Below, piece after piece: positions 1 through 11,138 of a DNA stretch of 36,504 nucleotides (position 1 is the first letter of the stretch; the number at the start of each line of letters is the position of its first letter). Made by a program: the position numbers and the translations under genes. The stretch comes from a virus. The DNA is taken from the IMG/VR virus record IMGVR_UViG_3300031951_000579, positions 1 through 36,504 of that record. The stretch is one strand, 5' to 3'. Below the pieces are notes generated by a model. That model saw only the letters and a program-made list of their open reading frames with translations, made no database searches and had not been told where the DNA came from.

Positions 1-334
1 ACCCCATCGCTTTAGCTGCCCGAGTGACTGCGCCGTACAACTTAGAATTAGCGTTGGGCGTGCCGTCGGTGCAAGTTCGAGTGACTTCTAACGTGCGCCC
101 GTCATCCAACGCGCGCGCTACTGGACGCCCGGCCACAGCTACACCCACAAGCGCGCCGTCAACCATCACGCCAAGGCTAAACTTATGCCCTATTGGCGGC
201 TTGTTATGCCGATGATGTTGCGCCACAAAGCCCTGCGCTTGTTTAAGTGAAAGAGGCACGATCTCTAAAATTTTTGATCTCCCGCATGCTTTAAAGTTTA
301 TGCCGTTGCAAACTTCAAAGCGATGGTATACCAT
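1..334 (-). CDS. XF1762-like phage protein (GNAT-like), partial
   Basis: Leftward gene whose C-terminus lies outside the window. The reverse-strand translation contains HHRHNKPPIGHKFSLGV followed by GVAVAGRPVARALDDG, then EVTRTCTDGTPNANSKLYGA. I recognise this as the conserved core of the XF1762 family, small phage and prophage proteins that resemble acetyltransferases; the substrate is unknown. The start is uncertain. The in-frame ATG at 334 has only a weak GGA upstream and gives an unusual N-terminal extension of about 21 residues. An ATT codon at 271, preceded by GGGAG at the ideal distance, would give MLEIVPLSLKQAQ, which fits the family start better. A GTG lies at 259. The gene is divergent from the replication operon. 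Confidence 0.75.
   Translation of the reverse strand, partial: MVYHRFEVCNGINFKACGRSKILEIVPLSLKQAQGFVAQHHRHNKPPIGHKFSLGVMVDGALVGVAVAGRPVARALDDGRTLEVTRTCTDGTPNANSKLYGAVTRAAKAMG
323..334. repeat. 12-bp perfect palindrome between divergent genes
   Basis: ATGGTATACCAT reads the same on both strands and lies in the gap between the leftward XF1762-like gene and the rightward operon. Each arm contains an ATG that opens a reading frame, one on each strand. It could be an operator, or chance; nothing else in the window repeats it. Confidence 0.3.
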
Positions 335-3066: not shown

Positions 3067-5012
3067 TTCTTTGGCTTGACAGCGAAACGCGCAGCCGCTG
3101 CGATCTTAGGGCGCGAGGGCCATATAACTATGCAAGAGACGCATCAACGGAAATATTGTGTCTGGCGTATGCGTTTGACGATGAAGAAGTAGATATATGG
3201 ATGCCAGGCCAGCCGTTTCCGCAGCGCGTCAGCGATCACTTTGCGAACGGGGGCCAAATACGAGTCCATAACGCCGCCTTTGACCGACTGATTCTCTGGT
3301 ATGTCCTCTGCCCCGACCTTGACCTGCCGGAGCCTGCGCTGGAGCAGTTCTATTGCACCGCAGCACAAGCCCGGTCTAACTGCGCGCCTGGTTCGCTCGA
3401 AGACGTCGGGCGGTTTGCGGGCGCGAGCATGAAGAAAGACCATCGTGGCGCGCAACTGGTCCGTAAGTGCTGTGTGCCGCCGTTTAAACATACCGAGCAG
3501 GACTTGCAGGATTTGTTCGAGTATTGCCGTCAAGACGTCCGCGCCATGCGAGCGGTCAGCAAGGGCATGCGCGACCTGTCAGCCGATGAGCTTGCCGATT
3601 ACCATGTCAACGAACGAATCAACGACCGGGGCGTGCTGGTCGATGTTGATCTGTGTCACGCGGCGATGCGATACAGCGAGGCCGAGCGCGTGGAAATCGA
3701 GGCGCGCGTCGTGGAGTTGACCGAGGGCATGGTCACGTCGGTGCGCTCGCCTAAGATGCGTGCGTGGGTCTTAGATCGACTGGGCCCCGAGGCCCGGAAG
3801 CTCGCTAAGTCATTTAAAGGCGGCGAGCCGAAGGACAGCATCGACAAAACAGTGCGGGCAAACCTGCTTGCGATGGAGAATCCTGATGAAGTACCGAGCG
3901 TCGTCTCCGAAGTTATCCAATGCGCCGACGACTTATGGGCAAGCTCGACTGCGAAGTTTAGCCGCCTCGCATCGTTGGCTGACGCAGAAGATCAGAGAAT
4001 CCGAGGTGCGTTTGTATTTGCTGGAGGCGCGGCGACAGGTCGAGCTAGCTCATATGGCGCACAGGTCCACAACTTCCCTCGGAAAGCCGCCAAAAAGCCC
4101 GCTGATCTTAGACACGCCCTCGTACGAGGCCACAGCGTCGTTCCAGCCTACGGACCGCGAGTCACCGACGTCCTGAAGTCGATGCTGCGCCCGGCGTTGG
4201 TCCCCGCGCCGGGTAAGCAGTTTGTTGTGGCCGACTGGTCGGCTATCGAGGGCCGCGTCAACCCGTGGCTGGCGAATAGCCCAGCAGGCGAGAAAAAGCT
4301 CGACATCTTCCGCGAGCGGCTTGACCCGTACAAGGTCAACGCCGCTGCGACCTACGGCGTGGCGTATGAGGCAGTCACCGACGATCAGCGCCAGGTCGGT
4401 AAGGTGCAGGAGTTAGCGCTCGGGTTCGGCGGGTCGATCGGCGCGTTTAGCGCGATGGGCCGCGTCTACGGCGTGCGCTTTGATGAGCCGCAAGCGCGGC
4501 GGATCGTTGACGCCTGGCGTCGTGCGAACCCGTGGGCGGTGGCGTTCTGGCAGGCGCTTGAGAACGCCTACATGTCCGCGATGCGTCACCGGGGGCATGA
4601 GTTCAGCGCGGGCCGCGTGACCTACGTCTATGACGGACAGCATCTCTGGTACATGCTGCCGAGCGGGCGCGTGCTCTGCTACCCCTACGCTAAGTTTGAA
4701 GGCGAGCATCTGACCTACGCCAAGGCCGCGTGGAAGCCTGCGGCTGACGCGACCGAATGGCCGCGTGCGCGCTTGTGGTCTGGGCTTGCGTGCGAGAACG
4801 TGACGCAGGCGAGCGCCCATGACATCCTACGGGCGGCGCTGCGGCAGGTGCCGGATGTTGTGCTGCATGTCCACGATGAAATCGTTGTCGAGACAGCCGA
4901 CCCGGACGCGGCGAAGGTAGAGCTTGAGCGTATGATGACGACCCCACCAGCGTGGGCCACAGGATTACCGCTGGCCGTCGAGGCCAAGGTGATGAGCGTG
5001 TATGGCAAATGA
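3063..5012 (+). CDS. family A DNA polymerase with 3'-5' exonuclease
   Basis: 650 residues from the ATG at 3063 (an ATG at 3051 would add four residues; MILWLDSET is the natural family start). Exonuclease motifs: Exo I LDSET (Asp6, Glu8), Exo II VHNAAFD (Asn70, Asp74), Exo III YCRQD (Tyr154, Asp158). Polymerase motifs: A VVADWSAIEGR (Asp391), B RQVGKVQELALGFGGS (Lys447), C VHDE (His604, Asp605, Glu606). All catalytic residues are present. There is no 5'-3' exonuclease domain, as in T7-like and other phage enzymes. It copies the phage genome, probably with the neighbouring primase-helicase and perhaps the DnaN-like protein encoded on the other strand. Confidence 0.95.
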   Translation: MILWLDSETRSRCDLRARGPYNYARDASTEILCLAYAFDDEEVDIWMPGQPFPQRVSDHFANGGQIRVHNAAFDRLILWYVLCPDLDLPEPALEQFYCTAAQARSNCAPGSLEDVGRFAGASMKKDHRGAQLVRKCCVPPFKHTEQDLQDLFEYCRQDVRAMRAVSKGMRDLSADELADYHVNERINDRGVLVDVDLCHAAMRYSEAERVEIEARVVELTEGMVTSVRSPKMRAWVLDRLGPEARKLAKSFKGGEPKDSIDKTVRANLLAMENPDEVPSVVSEVIQCADDLWASSTAKFSRLASLADAEDQRIRGAFVFAGGAATGRASSYGAQVHNFPRKAAKKPADLRHALVRGHSVVPAYGPRVTDVLKSMLRPALVPAPGKQFVVADWSAIEGRVNPWLANSPAGEKKLDIFRERLDPYKVNAAATYGVAYEAVTDDQRQVGKVQELALGFGGSIGAFSAMGRVYGVRFDEPQARRIVDAWRRANPWAVAFWQALENAYMSAMRHRGHEFSAGRVTYVYDGQHLWYMLPSGRVLCYPYAKFEGEHLTYAKAAWKPAADATEWPRARLWSGLACENVTQASAHDILRAALRQVPDVVLHVHDEIVVETADPDAAKVELERMMTTPPAWATGLPLAVEAKVMSVYGK

Positions 5013-5053: not shown

Positions 5054-7393
5054 ATGAACTTTGTCGATTATATCGTATCCCTTGCGCCCGAGGGCGAGAC
5101 CGTGTTGTTTGTGCGGCAAAAGCCCAAGCGTAACGCGGCGGGCGAGCTGCAATATCACGCCGATGGGGCGCTTAAGGCTACCTGGCCCGCGTTTCTGCCT
5201 GAACGGGCAAATCTGCAGGCCGAGGGCGCGGCTTGGTATGGCAACACGGGTTGTTTTGTCATCGACCGGTTTGTCGATGGCAAGGTCACAGCATCGGCTG
5301 CGGCGTGCGATTACGTGGTCTGCATGGTGCTCGATGACGTCGGGACTGACAAAGCCCCCAAGACCTCGCCCGTGCCGCCTACGTGGGTCATGGAAACCAG
5401 CGCAGGGTGCTATCAATGGGGCTATGCCTTCGACCCTGACAATCAACCGACCAAAGGCGCATATTCGGCGGCCATTCGCGCGATCGCCGCTGCGGGCTAC
5501 TCGGACCCTGGCGCGGTCAATCCGGTCAGAAACTTTCGCTTGCCAGATAGCGTCAACCTGAAACCCGACAAGGGTGGTTTCAAGGCCCGTCTGGTCGAGT
5601 TTCACCCTGAGCGCGTGTACAAGTTACCCGACCTCTGCGCCGCGCTGGGCGTTGAGCCGGGACCGGATGACACTAACGGTCTGCGCCCGGTGCGGTTGAG
5701 CGATGATGGGTCCGACGATGTGTTGGCGTGGTTGAGCGCGCAGGGGCTTGTGCTCGAGCGCCCCAACGGCGAGGGCTGGGCGGGTGTCGTATGCCCTAAT
5801 TCGAGCGAACACTCGGACGGCAACCCTGAAGGCCGTTACCTCGCATCAACGCGCGCCTACTGCTGCTATCACGGTCATTGCGAGGACTGGGACAGCGCGC
5901 GGTTTTTGCAGTGGGTCGCTGATCAGGGCGGGCCGAAACACACGCCGGGGCTGCGTGATGAGCTGCTAGCCGCCCGCATGGCCGAGGCGATGTCAAAGAT
6001 CACGCCGACCGAGGCGTTCCCCGACGCTGCGGCTGCGGTCGTGGCCGAGGTCGAGCGTCGCGAGGCGGGGCGGGTTGAGCGTGACGGTTGGTTTGAGCGG
6101 TTCGCGTACCTTCACGCCGATGACGGTTATTTTGATCTGGTCGAGCGTAAACAATATTCGCGCAGTAATTTCAACGCGATTTATCGGCATATCACCTGCT
6201 GGTCGGTGCATGCCGGGACTAATGGTAAGAAGCGCCGCGTCGAGGCGTCGATCAGTTTTGACGAAAACCGTCAGGCGATGGGCGCGCGGGTTCTGCAGGG
6301 CGTGACCTATGCTGCGGGTGAGTCAGTGCTGGTCGCACGCGCCGGGGACGTCTACGCGAACCTCTGGCGTGACGCGAGGCCAATCGTCGAGGGCGAGGCC
6401 GACGTTCGCCCGTGGCTTGATCTGGTCGAGCGGCTGTTGCCTGAGGCGTCCGAGCGCGAGCACCTGTTTGATTGGATGGCCTACAAGGTCCAAAACCCGC
6501 AACAGAAGATCAACCACGGCGTGCTGCTGGGCGGCGCGCCTGGTATCGGGAAAGATACAACCTTCGAGCCGTTTCTGTACGCGGTCGGCGGGCCGTCGCG
6601 CGAGAATGTCGCGCTCATCAAAAACGAAGAATTGAACTCGCAATGGGGATATTCGTTAATGGCGGAAGTGTTGGTCATTAACGAACTACGCCAGGCTGAT
6701 GCGTCCGATCGGCGCGCGCTCGAGAATCGGCTTAAGCCCTTGCTCGCTGCGCCGCCGGAATTGATACCGGTCAACCGCAAGGGCTTGCACCCGTTTGACG
6801 CTTTGAACCGGTTGAGCGTGGTCGCGTTCAGTAATGAGCGCATGGCGATTACGCTCCCGTCGGACGATCGCCGCTGGTACGTGCTCTGGTCGGACGCGCG
6901 CCCGCTGTCAAAGGCCGAGGGCGCAGCGATTTGGGACTGGTTTAAGGCCGGCGGGCGGGCAGCGGTCGCGGCTTGGTTACGCTCGAGGGACGTGAGCGCA
7001 TTCGCGCCTGGTGGCGCACCCCCGTTCACTGAGGCCAAGGCCATCATGCTATCGGCGGGTCTGTCGCTGGTCGAATCGGCGCTGGTCGAGATGATGCGAG
7101 ACAAGCGCGGGGAATTCGCATTGGGCGCGATTAAAGCCCCTTGGCAGGCTTTGGTTGACCGTCTGCAGCCTCTCATGCCGATCGGGTCGAAAGCAAGCGT
7201 ACACGCGCTCTTTCACGCGCTCCGCGAGGCGGGTTGGATTGATCTAGGCCGGGTCAAGGCGACCCCGAACGGTAGCAAGGTTCATTTGTACGCTTCGCCC
7301 GATACGCTCGAGAGTGTAGGAGGCAATCGCGCGGAGATTAAGCGGATGCTTGATAGCGCGAGCGGGTCTGTCGGCTTGCGAGCGGTCAAATGA
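5054..7393 (+). CDS. primase-helicase: RepB-like primase, zinc motif, D5/DUF5906 ATPase
   Basis: 779 residues from the ATG at 5054, which follows GGAGAG; the reading frame opens earlier at 4952 but inside the polymerase gene. The N-terminal 200 residues resemble AEP/RepB-type primases (VCMVLDDVGTD near residue 92; NPVRNFRLPDSVNLKP). A zinc-finger-like set follows: Cys247, His254, then CCYHGHC at 270-276, as in many phage primases. The C-terminal half is a superfamily 3 type ATPase with GGAPGIGKD (Lys500) and a Walker B-like EVLVINELRQ near residue 538. GKD replaces the usual GKS/T, as in DUF5906-type proteins. It probably primes and unwinds DNA for the upstream polymerase. The last codons overlap the next gene by four bases. 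Confidence 0.85.
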   Translation: MNFVDYIVSLAPEGETVLFVRQKPKRNAAGELQYHADGALKATWPAFLPERANLQAEGAAWYGNTGCFVIDRFVDGKVTASAAACDYVVCMVLDDVGTDKAPKTSPVPPTWVMETSAGCYQWGYAFDPDNQPTKGAYSAAIRAIAAAGYSDPGAVNPVRNFRLPDSVNLKPDKGGFKARLVEFHPERVYKLPDLCAALGVEPGPDDTNGLRPVRLSDDGSDDVLAWLSAQGLVLERPNGEGWAGVVCPNSSEHSDGNPEGRYLASTRAYCCYHGHCEDWDSARFLQWVADQGGPKHTPGLRDELLAARMAEAMSKITPTEAFPDAAAAVVAEVERREAGRVERDGWFERFAYLHADDGYFDLVERKQYSRSNFNAIYRHITCWSVHAGTNGKKRRVEASISFDENRQAMGARVLQGVTYAAGESVLVARAGDVYANLWRDARPIVEGEADVRPWLDLVERLLPEASEREHLFDWMAYKVQNPQQKINHGVLLGGAPGIGKDTTFEPFLYAVGGPSRENVALIKNEELNSQWGYSLMAEVLVINELRQADASDRRALENRLKPLLAAPPELIPVNRKGLHPFDALNRLSVVAFSNERMAITLPSDDRRWYVLWSDARPLSKAEGAAIWDWFKAGGRAAVAAWLRSRDVSAFAPGGAPPFTEAKAIMLSAGLSLVESALVEMMRDKRGEFALGAIKAPWQALVDRLQPLMPIGSKASVHALFHALREAGWIDLGRVKATPNGSKVHLYASPDTLESVGGNRAEIKRMLDSASGSVGLRAVK

Positions 7394-8055
7394 CGCCCCT
7401 AGTGCGCGAATTGTCGCGCATGGTCCCTACGCCCGAGGAGTCGGTTTGGTTCGACCTGGGCGAGATCGAGGGCGAGATTATGTTAGACGTGGCGCCCGAG
7501 CGATTGCTGCATTTACCATTCGACGATATCGCAATCGTTGGCGTGGTCGAGGGAATCCGGTTTGCCGTCCGCGCGATGGCGGGCAATGAGTCGGTCACAA
7601 TCGCCGGGTTTAGGTTCACGCGCGAGGCGCGAGACGATTTCGCGCCGCTAACGATTATGGCGGACCCCGAGACGGGCGGGTTGCGCGTGTATACGCGCGA
7701 CAATCGACGGGTGACGGACCTTGATCGAATCGCCATTGCGATTTTGGATTGCCTGCTAACGCGCTTGGACGGGTCGAAGGCGATCGAGGGGTATCGGGCC
7801 GAGGTTGCGCGGACCTTTACCGCACGGCGCCAAAAGGCGCGCGGGAAGGCGCCCGCTTACACATGGCGGACCGTAGAGATTACCGCACGCGTGCGGGCTG
7901 ATCGCGGGCCGGCGGGCGGGTCGCATGCGAGCCCGCGCGCCCATGAGCGCAGAGGGCATTGGCGGACCCTGCCGGCGGGTCGGGTTTGGGTCCGCCCGTG
8001 CCGGGTCGGCGATCCGGCGAGCGGATCCGTGTTTCACGACTACCGGGTGAAATAA
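7390..8055 (+). CDS. hypothetical phage protein with RGHWR-type C-terminal motif
   Basis: 221 residues, start overlapping the primase stop (ATGA). The N-terminal two-thirds is unrecognised, with an acidic start and LDRIAIAILDCLLTRLDG in the middle. The C-terminus is rich in Arg and His and carries HERRGHWRTLPAGRVWVRPC from residue 185. I have seen this block at the end of many otherwise unrelated phage and plasmid proteins (HERRGH-R-hydrophobic-G-WV), and it is probably a small nucleic-acid- or partner-binding module. It is the last gene of the rightward replication operon. Its stop codon overlaps the terminator of the facing operon. Confidence 0.75.
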   Translation: MTPLVRELSRMVPTPEESVWFDLGEIEGEIMLDVAPERLLHLPFDDIAIVGVVEGIRFAVRAMAGNESVTIAGFRFTREARDDFAPLTIMADPETGGLRVYTRDNRRVTDLDRIAIAILDCLLTRLDGSKAIEGYRAEVARTFTARRQKARGKAPAYTWRTVEITARVRADRGPAGGSHASPRAHERRGHWRTLPAGRVWVRPCRVGDPASGSVFHDYRVK

Positions 8056-8971: not shown

Positions 8972-9562
8972 TCAGGCGAGCGCCCATGCGGGCAGGGCTG
9001 AGAACTCAGCATCAGAGCGCATAGGCATAAGCACGCCAAGCGCCGCGCCTAGATTGCCAACGATCGCCGCTGCGCTGCCGTTGTAATGTATGTGCGGCTG
9101 TTTAGTGCCAAGCAAATCGGCGATGCGACCAAAATCACCAAGGTACTCGGCCTGATACTGGGCGGGCTCGCCCGATACCGTTTTCGGCAGCACGCGCCGC
9201 CAATCGGGAAATTTACCGTCAATCAGGGGCGTAACGGTTGACGTCGCGCCCGTGATCTTGTTTTCGAGCCCTTTTGCTGTGTCAATCTCGATAGTGATCG
9301 GTAGCATGTGGCGGCCAGCTTTGCAGGGCTTGACCGCCTCGAGCGCCTCGCGCGGGATGATGTACTGACCGGGCGCGAGCGCTTCGATTGCATCAGTGGC
9401 GACGGGATAGGCTAGCAGACGATGACCGTCGGTAGTGGCAAGGACAACGTCGCCGTTCGCGCGGGCGTCGACGCATATGCCCTTTAGGTAGTAGCGAATA
9501 TCTTGTTTCGCGGCGCAGATCAAAAGGGCTTTGACGATGTTGTGGTCGATGGTGATTTTCAT
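8972..9562 (-). CDS. shortened DnaN-like beta sliding clamp protein
   Basis: 196 residues with GAGGAG upstream of the ATG. It aligns by eye to domains 2-3 of bacterial DnaN: QDIRYYLKGI (20-29) matches E. coli QDVRYYLNGM, TTDGHRLL (43-50) matches ATDGHRLA, LIDGKFPDWRRVLPK (113-127) matches LVDGRFPDYRRVLPK, and MPMR (179-182) matches the MPMRL end. Domain 1 is absent. Only about 55 residues lie between the domain 2/3 junction and MPMR, against about 110 in E. coli, and 14 residues follow MPMR. It may be a phage processivity factor or a decoy that competes for host clamp partners. The homology is strong; the role is inferred. Confidence 0.85.
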   Translation of the reverse strand: MKITIDHNIVKALLICAAKQDIRYYLKGICVDARANGDVVLATTDGHRLLAYPVATDAIEALAPGQYIIPREALEAVKPCKAGRHMLPITIEIDTAKGLENKITGATSTVTPLIDGKFPDWRRVLPKTVSGEPAQYQAEYLGDFGRIADLLGTKQPHIHYNGSAAAIVGNLGAALGVLMPMRSDAEFSALPAWALA

Positions 9563-9608: not shown

Positions 9609-9962
9609 TTAAACGGTTAACAGGCGCGCCATGTTGGCGGGATTGACATACACGGTAGCCGTCGCGGGCTTACCGCAAAACGTACCGGTTTCGACAATTA
9701 CAACATCGGGCGGAATTTGCACTTCAGGCGCTTGGCGCGGCCCGCCGAATTGAGGCGGCGCGTATTGCGGCGCGCCTTTGTTGCGGCCCGTCGCCAGCTC
9801 TACCGCTGTATAGGTAGACCGCGAACCGCCGTCCCAATACGTGCCGTGTAGCGTGACACTCTCGCGGGTATAAATAAACGCCTTCGTTTTGCGGTAGGTA
9901 GGATCGGCGGCGCGGATAACGCGGAGAATCTCAGGATGCTGTTTTAAGGTAACGGTTTGCAT
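9609..9962 (-). CDS. hypothetical protein, first gene of the leftward operon
   Basis: 117 residues from the ATG at 9962 (MQTVTLKQHPEILRVIRAAD), preceded by CGAGGAGC nine bases upstream; a longer frame to 10019 has no such site. The first 50 residues look like a compact alpha/beta unit (PTYRKTKAFIYTRESVTLHG), followed by a Pro/Gln-rich linker (QYAPPQFGGPRQAPE) and a beta-rich end (VVIVETGTFCGKPATATVYV). No family is recognised. It is transcribed with the DnaN-like gene, so a role in DNA metabolism is possible. Confidence 0.7.
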   Translation of the reverse strand: MQTVTLKQHPEILRVIRAADPTYRKTKAFIYTRESVTLHGTYWDGGSRSTYTAVELATGRNKGAPQYAPPQFGGPRQAPEVQIPPDVVIVETGTFCGKPATATVYVNPANMARLLTV

Positions 9963-9977
9963 GTTGTGTGCTCCTCG

Positions 9978-9998
9978 GTTGATGCGATCGGCGATCGC
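9978..9998 (-). promoter_or_regulatory. leader hairpin copy A
   Basis: On the minus strand: GCGATC-GCC-GATCGC, a 6-bp stem with a 3-base loop, running into GCATCAAC (complement of 9978-9985) and CGAGGAGC. Stem and loop differ from copies B and C, but the hairpin / GCATCAAC / ribosome-binding-site order is the same. Confidence 0.6.
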
Positions 9999-10020
9999 GT
10001 GAACAACACTTTGCCACATA

Positions 10021-10048: not shown

Positions 10049-10060
10049 TGACCCATTGAC
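10049..10060 (+). repeat. TGACCCAT repeat, leftmost copy
   Basis: TGACCCAT followed directly by TGAC (partial second unit, 8-bp step), just upstream of the leftward promoter. Member of the repeat family described at 10387-10476. Confidence 0.5.
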
Positions 10061-10159
10061 GCGTGCGACAAGACGCGTTGCAGATAGCCGCGCTGTCAAT
10101 ATGGGAACCCCAACGGGGTATTGGCGTGGGTGCCTTACGCGGAGCGTGTTTCCCTCTGA

Positions 10160-10176
10160 ATGGGTCTTATGGGTCA
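10160..10176 (-). repeat. inverted TGACCCAT doublet
   Basis: ATGGGTCT (10160-10167) and ATGGGTCA (10169-10176) are the repeat read on the minus strand, with the same 9-bp step as the plus-strand doublets. The second is perfect, the first has one change. It lies 34 bp before the SOS box. Confidence 0.6.
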
Positions 10177-10209
10177 TTGTTTTGTTAGATACTGTCAAAA
10201 TAAAAAAAA

Positions 10210-10229
10210 TACTGTATATCCGTACAGTA
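10210..10229. promoter_or_regulatory. LexA/SOS box
   Basis: TACTGTATATCCGTACAGTA matches the E. coli SOS consensus at 17 of 20 positions and keeps the key CTGT-N8-ACAG core exactly. Half sites ACTGT also occur at 10191 and 10232, about 20 bp (two turns) on each side. A possible rightward promoter overlaps it: CTGTCA at 10192-10197, 17 bp, TATATC at 10215-10220. Bound host LexA would block that promoter until DNA damage. No lexA-like gene is present in the window. Confidence 0.65.
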
Positions 10230-10297
10230 GCACTGTATGGCGGCGCTGGCGGGAGCACGCGCAAAACATTGGCGCGACTAAAAGTGGGGTACCCATG

Positions 10298-10314
10298 TGA
10301 CCCAGATGACCCAT
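10298..10314 (+). repeat. TGACCCAT doublet
   Basis: TGACCCAG (10298-10305) and TGACCCAT (10307-10314) in direct orientation with a 9-bp step. Same family as the clusters at 10160 and 10387. Confidence 0.6.
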
Positions 10315-10386
10315 AACCCCCGTTTCACCCAGCCCCGCGCCCCTTTCCCGCCCGTTTCCCAAAACCGTTTATCAATTCAAATGGTC

Positions 10387-10476
10387 ATGACCCATTTGAC
10401 CCATTGACCCGGTTTGCATGCGGTTTGGACGCACGCCTTCGACCCGCTGGGCCATGACCCATGTGACCCATTGACC
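10387..10476 (+). repeat. two near-identical 23-bp TGACCCAT triplets
   Basis: The unit ATGACCCAT-(T/G)-TGACCCAT-TGACC occurs at 10387-10409 and 10454-10476, 67 bp apart, with one difference. Each holds two full octamers (9-bp step) and a third partial one (8-bp step). With the copies at 10049, 10160-10176 and 10298-10314 this makes five clusters in 430 bp. The spacing is like iterons or cooperative operators. Confidence 0.75.
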
Positions 10477-10619
10477 GCACGCCTGGCGGGCTGGCGCGGC
10501 CGGTAGCTGATAGCTTGCGTCGATCGGAGCCGGTCGGCTGATAGCCCCCGGCCAGGGCCGGCGGCTGGCCCGATCAAAAACGGACCCCTCACAAAAACTT
10601 TTTTATTTATCAGTCCACG

Positions 10620-10685
10620 CCACACAATTTGTATCAGTGCAAAAAATTTTTCTTTTATATATAATTGCTGCACCACACAATCTGT
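10620..10685 (+). repeat. 13-bp direct repeat flanking the terS promoter
   Basis: CCACACAATTTGT (10620-10632) and CCACACAATCTGT (10673-10685) differ at one base and lie on either side of the A/T-rich promoter, the second near the expected transcription start. TGCACCAC is also repeated at 10669-10676 and 10686-10693. Possible operator sites. Confidence 0.45.
10637..10665 (+). promoter_or_regulatory. probable promoter for the late/terminase operon
   Basis: A perfect TATAAT lies at 10660-10665 in an A/T-rich tract. The -35 at 17 bp (GTGCAA, 10637-10642) is poor. Transcription would begin near 10672, about 26 bases before the terS ATG. Confidence 0.5.
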
Positions 10686-10697
10686 TGCACCACCTAG

Positions 10698-11138
10698 ATG
10701 ACTTTCCAGTCACTTCCGCTCACGGCGCGCACGCTGGTTGCTACCGAAGCGCGTCTGCAGCGCATCTACGACGCTGCCAAGTTAGGTCTAAAGGGCGACG
10801 CGCTGGCGCTAGCGGCAGGAATGTTGCCCACCGAGTTCCGGCGTCTGTGTCAGATGGACCCAATTGCCGAAATGGCAGAACAGAAAGGGCGCGCTGACGC
10901 TGAGAAAGAGCTAGCGGCTGTTATGATGAGCGCGGCGTTGGCAGGCGATACCAAAGCGGCGCTTGAGGTGCTAAAGCACCGGCACGATTGGGTTGCTAAG
11001 CAGCAAGTGCAAATTGACGTTGCGCAACAGATCAGCGTCATCAGCGCGCTAGAACAGGCAGAGCAGCGCGTCATCGACGTGCAGGCGACCGAGAAACTGG
11101 AGCCATCACTTGCAGCAGCCAATCTACAGCGCATCTGA
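10698..11138 (+). CDS. terS: terminase small subunit
   Basis: 146 residues. It directly precedes and overlaps the large subunit gene. The layout fits small subunits: an N-terminal helix-turn-helix-like region (RIYDAAKLGLKGDALALAAGMLPTEF as two adjoining helices), then EKELAAVMMSAALAGDTKAA and LEVLKHRHDWVAKQ, the alanine-rich oligomerisation segment typical of phage TerS, then a C-terminal tail that would contact TerL. It recognises phage DNA and starts packaging. No strong ribosome binding site is visible before the ATG. The repeat clusters upstream could be its binding sites, which is untested. Confidence 0.8.
   Translation: MTFQSLPLTARTLVATEARLQRIYDAAKLGLKGDALALAAGMLPTEFRRLCQMDPIAEMAEQKGRADAEKELAAVMMSAALAGDTKAALEVLKHRHDWVAKQQVQIDVAQQISVISALEQAEQRVIDVQATEKLEPSLAAANLQRI

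What the first reader, a model, noticed from the sequence alone, without database searches (positions are those of the whole stretch)
10049..10476. Five clusters of TGACCCAT repeats with 8-9 bp period
Clusters lie at 10049, 10160-10176 (inverted), 10298-10314, 10387-10409 and 10454-10476. The last two are near-identical 23-bp units. Doublets and triplets with steps of 8-9 bp in both orientations look like iterons of an origin, a multi-site operator, or the binding site of the small terminase subunit, whose gene is the next one on the right. No repeat of this kind was noticed elsewhere in the window.
Basis: seen in the sequence. Interest (0 to 1): 0.65.

Follow-up and report, generated by a model that had tools for sequence, protein, structure and literature searches.

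The report
Phage origin iterons matched to primase-helicase
The repeats look like the start site for copying the genome of a large family of freshwater phages: a row of short "docking words" read by the tail domain of the phage's own primase-helicase, and across hundreds of relatives the word and the reading domain change together.

Summary
All seven exact TGACCCAT copies in the 36.5-kb window lie in 10049-10471, mostly as head-to-tail doublets 9 bp apart, with one inverted doublet. Relatives from IMG/VR allowed a natural experiment. Phages with nearly the same (even identical) small terminase (TerS) carry either a TGACCCAT array or an unrelated TACCCCAC array at the same spot. Only one protein splits by array type: the C-terminal half (SF3 helicase plus winged-helix-like domain) of the phage primase-helicase. 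TerS, TerL, DNA polymerase and clamp do not. Across the wider family the array stays in place (115/136 loci; 85/87 held-out loci), keeps the 9-bp step and encloses an AT-rich element, but its word changes. The two primase columns that track the word best are wing residues 755 and 750. A rule found in one set of loci (D/E at 755 goes with a CCACA-rich array) was written down and then held in unseen loci: 33/34 with D/E755 against 6/53 without. The best reading is a replication origin of the SaPI/SCC "self-loading initiator helicase" kind, in a new phage family whose iterons diversify with the initiator. TerS binding is not supported. Binding and origin activity are inferred, not measured.

The parts
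10049..10064 (+). iteron cluster 1: TGACCCAT + degenerate TGACGCGT (8-bp step)
10160..10176 (-). iteron cluster 2: inverted doublet (AGACCCAT, TGACCCAT, 9-bp step), left of the AT-rich element
10180..10219 (.). AT-rich element (17% GC) between inverted and direct iterons; candidate unwinding element
10290..10314 (+). iteron cluster 3: degenerate TACCCATG then TGACCCAG-A-TGACCCAT
10388..10412 (+). iteron cluster 4: TGACCCAT-T-TGACCCAT-TGACCC
10455..10476 (+). iteron cluster 5: TGACCCAT-G-TGACCCAT-TGACC
10480..10578 (.). GC-rich repetitive spacer; in many relatives it holds tandem GGCTGACG-type repeats
10590..10697 (.). second AT-rich stretch next to TerS, with CCACACAAT direct repeats; probably the TerS/late promoter region (inference)
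5054..7393 (+). primase-helicase (DUF5906/SF3; homologues start at MNF, 5054; residue numbers in this report count from the ATG at 5009)
7064..7363 (+). C-terminal domain of the primase-helicase (residues 686-785), predicted winged helix, proposed iteron reader
7199..7231 (+). predicted recognition helix, residues 731-741
7238..7297 (+). predicted wing, residues 744-763; 750 and 755 track the array word best of 466 columns
9609..10019 (-). unknown protein, left neighbour of the array; found in only three loci of the same clade

Best explanation
The array is the replication origin of this phage. It is a set of short iterons read by the C-terminal winged-helix-like domain of the phage's own primase-helicase. 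Inverted iterons left of an AT-rich element and direct iterons right of it would load and orient two helicase hexamers, which melt the AT-rich DNA; the primase half then primes synthesis by the phage family-A polymerase. Shown by computation: the array, its conserved place, 9-bp step and AT-rich core in relatives, and the covariation of its word with the primase C-terminal half and with wing residues 750/755. Inferred: physical binding, hexamer loading, melting and origin activity.
For: Switch test: 56 TGACCC and 45 TACCCC loci with TerS at least 80% identical to the window's. Between-class identity is 0.67 for the helicase and 0.50 for the CTD (within class 0.87/0.95 and 0.77/0.93), but 0.90 for the primase N half and 0.92 for TerS (up to 1.00). 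AUC for array sharing in that clade: 0.85-0.90 for the primase C half, 0.52-0.59 for all else. Array found in 115/136 family loci. 9-bp head-to-tail step across many words. The AT-richest 60-mer near the array is the AT-richest of the whole locus in 83% of 113 loci; inverted/direct layout around it. Wing columns 755 and 750 rank 1 and 2 of 466. Pre-registered rule held in 87 unseen loci, 33/34 against 6/53. On the primase N-half tree 9 branches change both traits, all in the same direction, against 1.24 expected. Fold: SF3 helicase of the NrS-1/SaPI5 PriRep1 group; CTD resembles winged helices. Precedent: SaPI Rep and SCC Cch2 read short ori repeats with their C-terminal domain (PMC7581432).
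Against: No binding or replication data exist. The array lies about 3 kb downstream of the primase gene, not directly behind it as in SaPI/SCC. One contig (L073/L089) pairs a TACCCC-type primase with a TGACCC array; it matches two parents exactly on either side of the clamp gene, so it is chimeric or a very recent recombinant. Family-wide AUCs are modest (CTD 0.70; 0.75 without TGACCC-TGACCC pairs), and an N-half window (231-242) has a higher mean AMI than the wing. The CTD fold matches are weak (best Z 6.7). GC skew gives no clear origin signal.
Confidence: 0.82

Rival explanations
1. The primase-helicase does bind the array, but mainly for control (copy control like the P4 crr locus, or repression of the divergent promoters), and replication starts elsewhere.
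For: The region is a divergent intergenic gap, and covariation shows which protein reads the site, not what happens next. P4 alpha binds both ori and crr (own knowledge).
Against: The AT-richest segment of the locus lies inside the array in most relatives, and the inverted/direct layout around it is that of an origin. No second array of the same word was found in the window.
Confidence: 0.09
2. It is a multi-site operator read by another phage regulator that travels with the primase C half.
For: Divergent gene pair on either side. Some relatives carry a second, palindromic element (CACTAAC, opposite-orientation pairs) in the same region that may be a true operator.
Against: The genes between primase and array do not split by array class (clamp 13/20, 8486-8935 gene 6/11 nearest-neighbour accuracy) or were found only in a few TGACCC loci (9609-10019 in three, 7390-8055 in four). 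Specificity columns fall in the primase's own recognition helix and wing.
Confidence: 0.05
3. It is the packaging (pac/cos) site bound by TerS.
For: TerS is the next gene. In lambda-like relatives (L087, L160, L175) a similar array lies just upstream of a terminase small subunit gene.
Against: Identical TerS proteins coexist with different arrays; TerS predicts array class in 7/28 cases. In L181 and L178 the same kind of array lies beside a primase gene with no terminase adjacent.
Confidence: 0.03
4. Chance clustering or low-complexity artefact.
For: None beyond short word length.
Against: 0 of 60 simulations exceed 4 copies of any 8-mer in 430 bp against 7 here; conserved in dozens of contigs.
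Confidence: 0.005

Closest known systems
SaPI Rep / ori (staphylococcal pathogenicity islands; SaPI5 PriRep1, PDB 7ola/7om0/7pds) and SCCmec Cch2 / ori
   Same: Self-loading initiator helicase whose C-terminal domain recognises an origin made of short repeats, proposed to bind as two hexamers (PMC7581432). The window's C half matches SaPI5 PriRep1 at Z 17.5.
   Different: Here primase and helicase are fused as in NrS-1-type PrimPols. The origin is about 3 kb from the gene, beside TerS. Copies come as 9-bp-step doublets, and the word varies widely between relatives.
NrS-1 phage primase-polymerase-helicase (PDB 6k9c/6k9e/6lrb)
   Same: Closest solved fold for the C half (Z 25.9; profile E 4e-12), and a phage genome of similar size.
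   Different: Its Tail domain (residues 619-718) was described as a novel fold (PMC7102993). No origin array is reported there in what I read, and the NrS-1 record was not held.
P4 alpha protein and its ori/crr iterons
   Same: Primase-helicase that reads decamer repeats through a C-terminal winged helix (own knowledge).
   Different: Different primase type (Toprim/DnaG-like), word and geometry (own knowledge); not compared directly here.
MW202483.1, uncultured podovirus ctNMl277 (Manatee Spring)
   Same: 47% identical primase-helicase and homologous CTD, with an 11-copy array of another word (GTTTACA) between the primase and terminase genes.
   Different: Different word; the deposited record is annotated only with genes.

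Membership tests
SaPI/SCC-type iteron origin served by a self-loading SF3/D5 initiator helicase | Initiator helicase of the SF3/D5 class encoded by the element | tested here: met
   DUF5906; fold match to NrS-1 CTR, SaPI5 PriRep1 and D5
SaPI/SCC-type iteron origin served by a self-loading SF3/D5 initiator helicase | Multiple short repeats near the gene, flanking or enclosing an AT-rich element | tested here: met
SaPI/SCC-type iteron origin served by a self-loading SF3/D5 initiator helicase | Repeats lie directly downstream of the initiator gene | tested here: not met
   Median primase stop to TerS start is 3071 bp; the array lies just upstream of TerS. So I call it a related variant, not a member of the SaPI family.
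SaPI/SCC-type iteron origin served by a self-loading SF3/D5 initiator helicase | C-terminal domain of the initiator recognises the repeats | tested here: inconclusive
   Strong covariation; binding itself not testable here
SaPI/SCC-type iteron origin served by a self-loading SF3/D5 initiator helicase | Repeats required for autonomous replication | not testable with these tools
   needs a plasmid replication assay
Winged-helix DNA-binding domain (primase CTD) | Helix-strand-helix-helix-strand-wing-strand topology | tested here: met
   AF2 model pLDDT 87.1: H2-12, E22-24, H27-37, H46-56, E59-64, E73-77
Winged-helix DNA-binding domain (primase CTD) | Structural similarity to solved winged helices | tested here: inconclusive
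   Many listed hits are winged-helix proteins, but best Z 6.7 and Foldseek E 0.027
TerS pac/cos recognition site | Site sequence covaries with TerS | tested here: not met
   identical TerS with different arrays; 7/28

The most novel reading that the evidence does not exclude
The family holds a readable specificity code. A few wing and recognition-helix residues (750, 755, probably 731/735/739) of one initiator domain set the iteron word, and phages change origin identity repeatedly by exchanging the primase C half together with the array, possibly to escape origin-stealing satellites or co-infecting relatives.
Probability: 0.4. Interest if true: 0.8.

Novelty: new variant of a known kind. Interest (0 to 1): 0.64.

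Why it matters
How replication initiators change the DNA word they recognise is usually studied with a few pairs. Here one phage family offers dozens of origin words in an otherwise fixed layout, each with its matching initiator, and a rule that already predicts unseen cases. It gives origins to a large group of uncultured freshwater phages and suggests a function for the C-terminal Tail domain of NrS-1-type primase-polymerases. It also makes initiator specificity swaps testable with one small domain and short DNA.

Tried and rejected
TerS as reader: rejected by the switch test. Clamp, polymerase, 8486-8935 gene, TerL and portal as readers: no split by array class. 9609-10019 and 7390-8055 genes: found in only a few loci of one class. 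Raw global AUCs over all pairs with unfiltered words were uninformative (0.62-0.74), because TGACCCA is shared by very distant primases and common GC-rich codon words add noise; restricting to the TerS-upstream region helped. GC skew gave no clear origin signal. The sigma-70 scan found nothing above shuffles. Sequence profile search for the CTD in the PDB gave only chance hits. The CTD profile did not match the primases of L160, L175, L087, L181 or L178, so their use of a TGACCC word may be convergent; they were found through that word. Scattered TGACCCA copies inside genes (L083, L094, L109, L145) are chance. Megablast of the window against named phages gave nothing. The NrS-1 genome record was not held. 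P4 alpha as a structural relative was neither found nor excluded. Two paper searches on P4 crr and SaPI returned nothing directly usable; the 2012 SaPIbov1 origin paper was not held.

Full report
OBSERVATION. TGACCCAT occurs 7 times exactly in the window, all within 10049-10471. No 8-mer exceeded 4 copies in 430 bp in 60 Markov simulations, and the best elsewhere in the window is 4. The copies form doublets or triplets with 9- and 8-bp steps, one doublet inverted, in the 678-bp divergent intergenic gap between a leftward gene (9609-10019) and the TerS gene (10698-11138).

SETTING. The window is a whole IMG/VR virus record of 36,504 bases. Genes found: DUF2800 exonuclease, family-A DNA polymerase, DUF5906 primase-helicase, a sliding-clamp-like protein, terminases and portal. 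The primase C half (model residue 1 = residue 357) was predicted at pLDDT 89.7. Its best solved relatives are the NrS-1 C-terminal region (Z 25.9), SaPI5 PriRep1 (Z 17.5), AsfvPrimPol and poxvirus D5-type helicases. The last 100 residues alone fold as a winged-helix-like domain (pLDDT 87.1); many of the weak matches are winged-helix proteins (best Z 6.7).

NATURAL EXPERIMENT 1: A CLEAN SWITCH. Among IMG/VR contigs with a close TerS, the region upstream of TerS holds either TGACCCAT or TACCCCAC repeats, never both (56 and 45 loci). Between classes the primase N half is 0.90 identical, TerS 0.92 (maximum 1.00), polymerase 0.87 and clamp 0.82, and none separates the classes. The helicase part is 0.67 and the CTD 0.50 identical between classes, against 0.87/0.95 and 0.77/0.93 within them. 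Nearest-neighbour class accuracy is 31/33 (helicase) and 16/18 (CTD) against 7/28 (TerS), 24/48 (TerL), 13/20 (clamp) and 5/10 (polymerase). The two misses per segment trace to one contig held as L073 and L089. It is an exact 3,717-base match to a TACCCC contig (L040) up to 5167, and an exact 564-base match to TGACCC contigs (L138, L039) from 5387 on, so it is chimeric or a very recent recombinant. Pairwise AUC for sharing an array within this clade is 0.88, 0.85 and 0.90 for the three C-half segments and 0.52-0.59 for everything else. The primase changes class near residue 360.

NATURAL EXPERIMENT 2: THE WHOLE FAMILY. Wider scans with primase alignments show a repeated word above shuffles within 900 bp upstream of TerS in 115 of 136 loci, with about 40 different top words, many of them register variants of the same motif. 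The 9-bp head-to-tail step recurs for TGACCCA, TGTCCACA, TACCCCA, GTAGTCA (= TGACTAC), TAGCCTA, GGCACAC and TGCCGAA. In 83% of 113 loci the AT-richest 60-mer of this region is the AT-richest of the whole locus. For TGACCCA, copies left of it are mostly inverted (66 to 36) and copies right of it mostly direct (216 to 36). A named relative outside IMG/VR, MW202483, has 11 copies of GTTTACA between its primase and terminase genes.

WHICH RESIDUES. With TGACCC-TGACCC pairs removed, 7 of the 20 primase columns that best track array sharing fall in the predicted recognition helix and wing (731, 735, 739, 750, 752, 755, 758), where 0.7 are expected. With redundancy reduced to 38 representatives, columns 755 and 750 rank first and second of 466 by adjusted mutual information (0.369 and 0.306), above the best of 30 label permutations (0.286). 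Against this, a window in the N half (231-242) has a higher mean value than the wing, and with TGACCC pairs kept the helix and wing are not the top block. Shared ancestry therefore contributes.

PREDICTION AND HELD-OUT TEST. In the loci first examined, D or E at 755 went with at least 6 CCACA copies upstream of TerS (24/25, against 16/101 without D/E; 9/9 against 3/40 in representatives). This was written down before new data were fetched. In 87 loci not held before, D/E755 had such arrays in 33 of 34 and others in 6 of 53 (Fisher p 9e-17; among 29 loci under 85% identical to any earlier primase 3/3 against 2/26, p 0.003). Arrays were present in 85 of 87, and the 9-bp same-strand step was again the commonest. 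On a tree of the primase N half, 755 D/E changes 15 times and the CCACA state 19 times; 9 branches carry both, all in the same direction, where 1.24 are expected (p 8.5e-8).

MECHANISM. The best-supported reading is a replication origin. Iterons recruit the primase-helicase through its C-terminal winged helix; inverted and direct sets around the AT-rich element would place two hexamers; melting and priming follow, and the phage polymerase and clamp extend. The covariation, layout and conservation are shown. Binding, loading and initiation are inferred by analogy with SaPI Rep and SCC Cch2, whose C-terminal domains read short repeats at their origins (PMC7581432). Autoregulation of the divergent genes through the same sites is compatible and not excluded.

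MEMBERSHIP AND NOVELTY. It works like a SaPI/SCC origin, but one defining feature is not met: the origin is not directly behind the initiator gene (median 3.1 kb to TerS). I therefore call it a new variant of a known kind. New elements are the phage family, the fused NrS-1-type initiator, the fixed layout with a diversifying word, and a specificity rule that predicted unseen cases. In what I read of the NrS-1 structure paper the Tail domain is described as a novel fold (PMC7102993); the present data suggest, for this family, that the equivalent part reads the origin.

LIMITS. Nearly all loci are metagenomic. Word classes were assigned by simple k-mer counts. The CCACA rule was found by inspection before being tested. 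Sampling is biased to high-scoring contigs (80 per scan). Nothing here measures binding.

Noticed in passing
L295, L297, L303, L308, L314, L323, L346 and others, upstream of TerS: A second repeated element, CACTAAC/GTTAGTG, often in opposite-orientation pairs 9 bp apart (palindromes) and often beside a TGTCCACA array; probably an operator of a different protein.
   Followed up: partly
window 10480-10578 and the same place in L017, L024, L039, L042, L073: GC-rich, highly variable tandem repeats (GGCTGACG, CCCGCCCG, CTGCCCGC types) between the array and TerS in many relatives.
   Followed up: no
L087 1881-2110, L175 2144-2395, L160 1848-2045, L181 582-855, L178 6916-7145: TGACCC arrays beside unrelated primases (VapE-like, DUF5906, Zn-ribbon/Toprim/DUF927) whose C-termini do not match this family's CTD; possible convergent use of the same word, found through that word.
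   Followed up: partly
L180 (contig of 37,277 bases, reverse) against the window: A phage with identical TerS (over the part held) and 9609-10019 gene carries 13 TGACCCA copies where the window has 8: copy number changes fast between near relatives.
   Followed up: no
window 8972-9562 (-): Sliding-clamp-like protein (DNA_pol3_beta_2, E 1e-10) whose best PHROG family is labelled RusA-like resolvase; that label may be wrong.
   Followed up: no
L073/L089 5167-5387: Junction of exact matches to two different lineages; chimeric contig or fresh recombinant.
   Followed up: yes
L512, L513, L514: Relatives of the primase sit on contigs binned into Rhodoferax and other (beta)proteobacterial MAGs, a hint at hosts.
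   Followed up: no
window 10620-10632 and 10673-10685: Two CCACACAAT(T/C)TGT direct repeats in the AT-rich stretch just before TerS.
   Followed up: no
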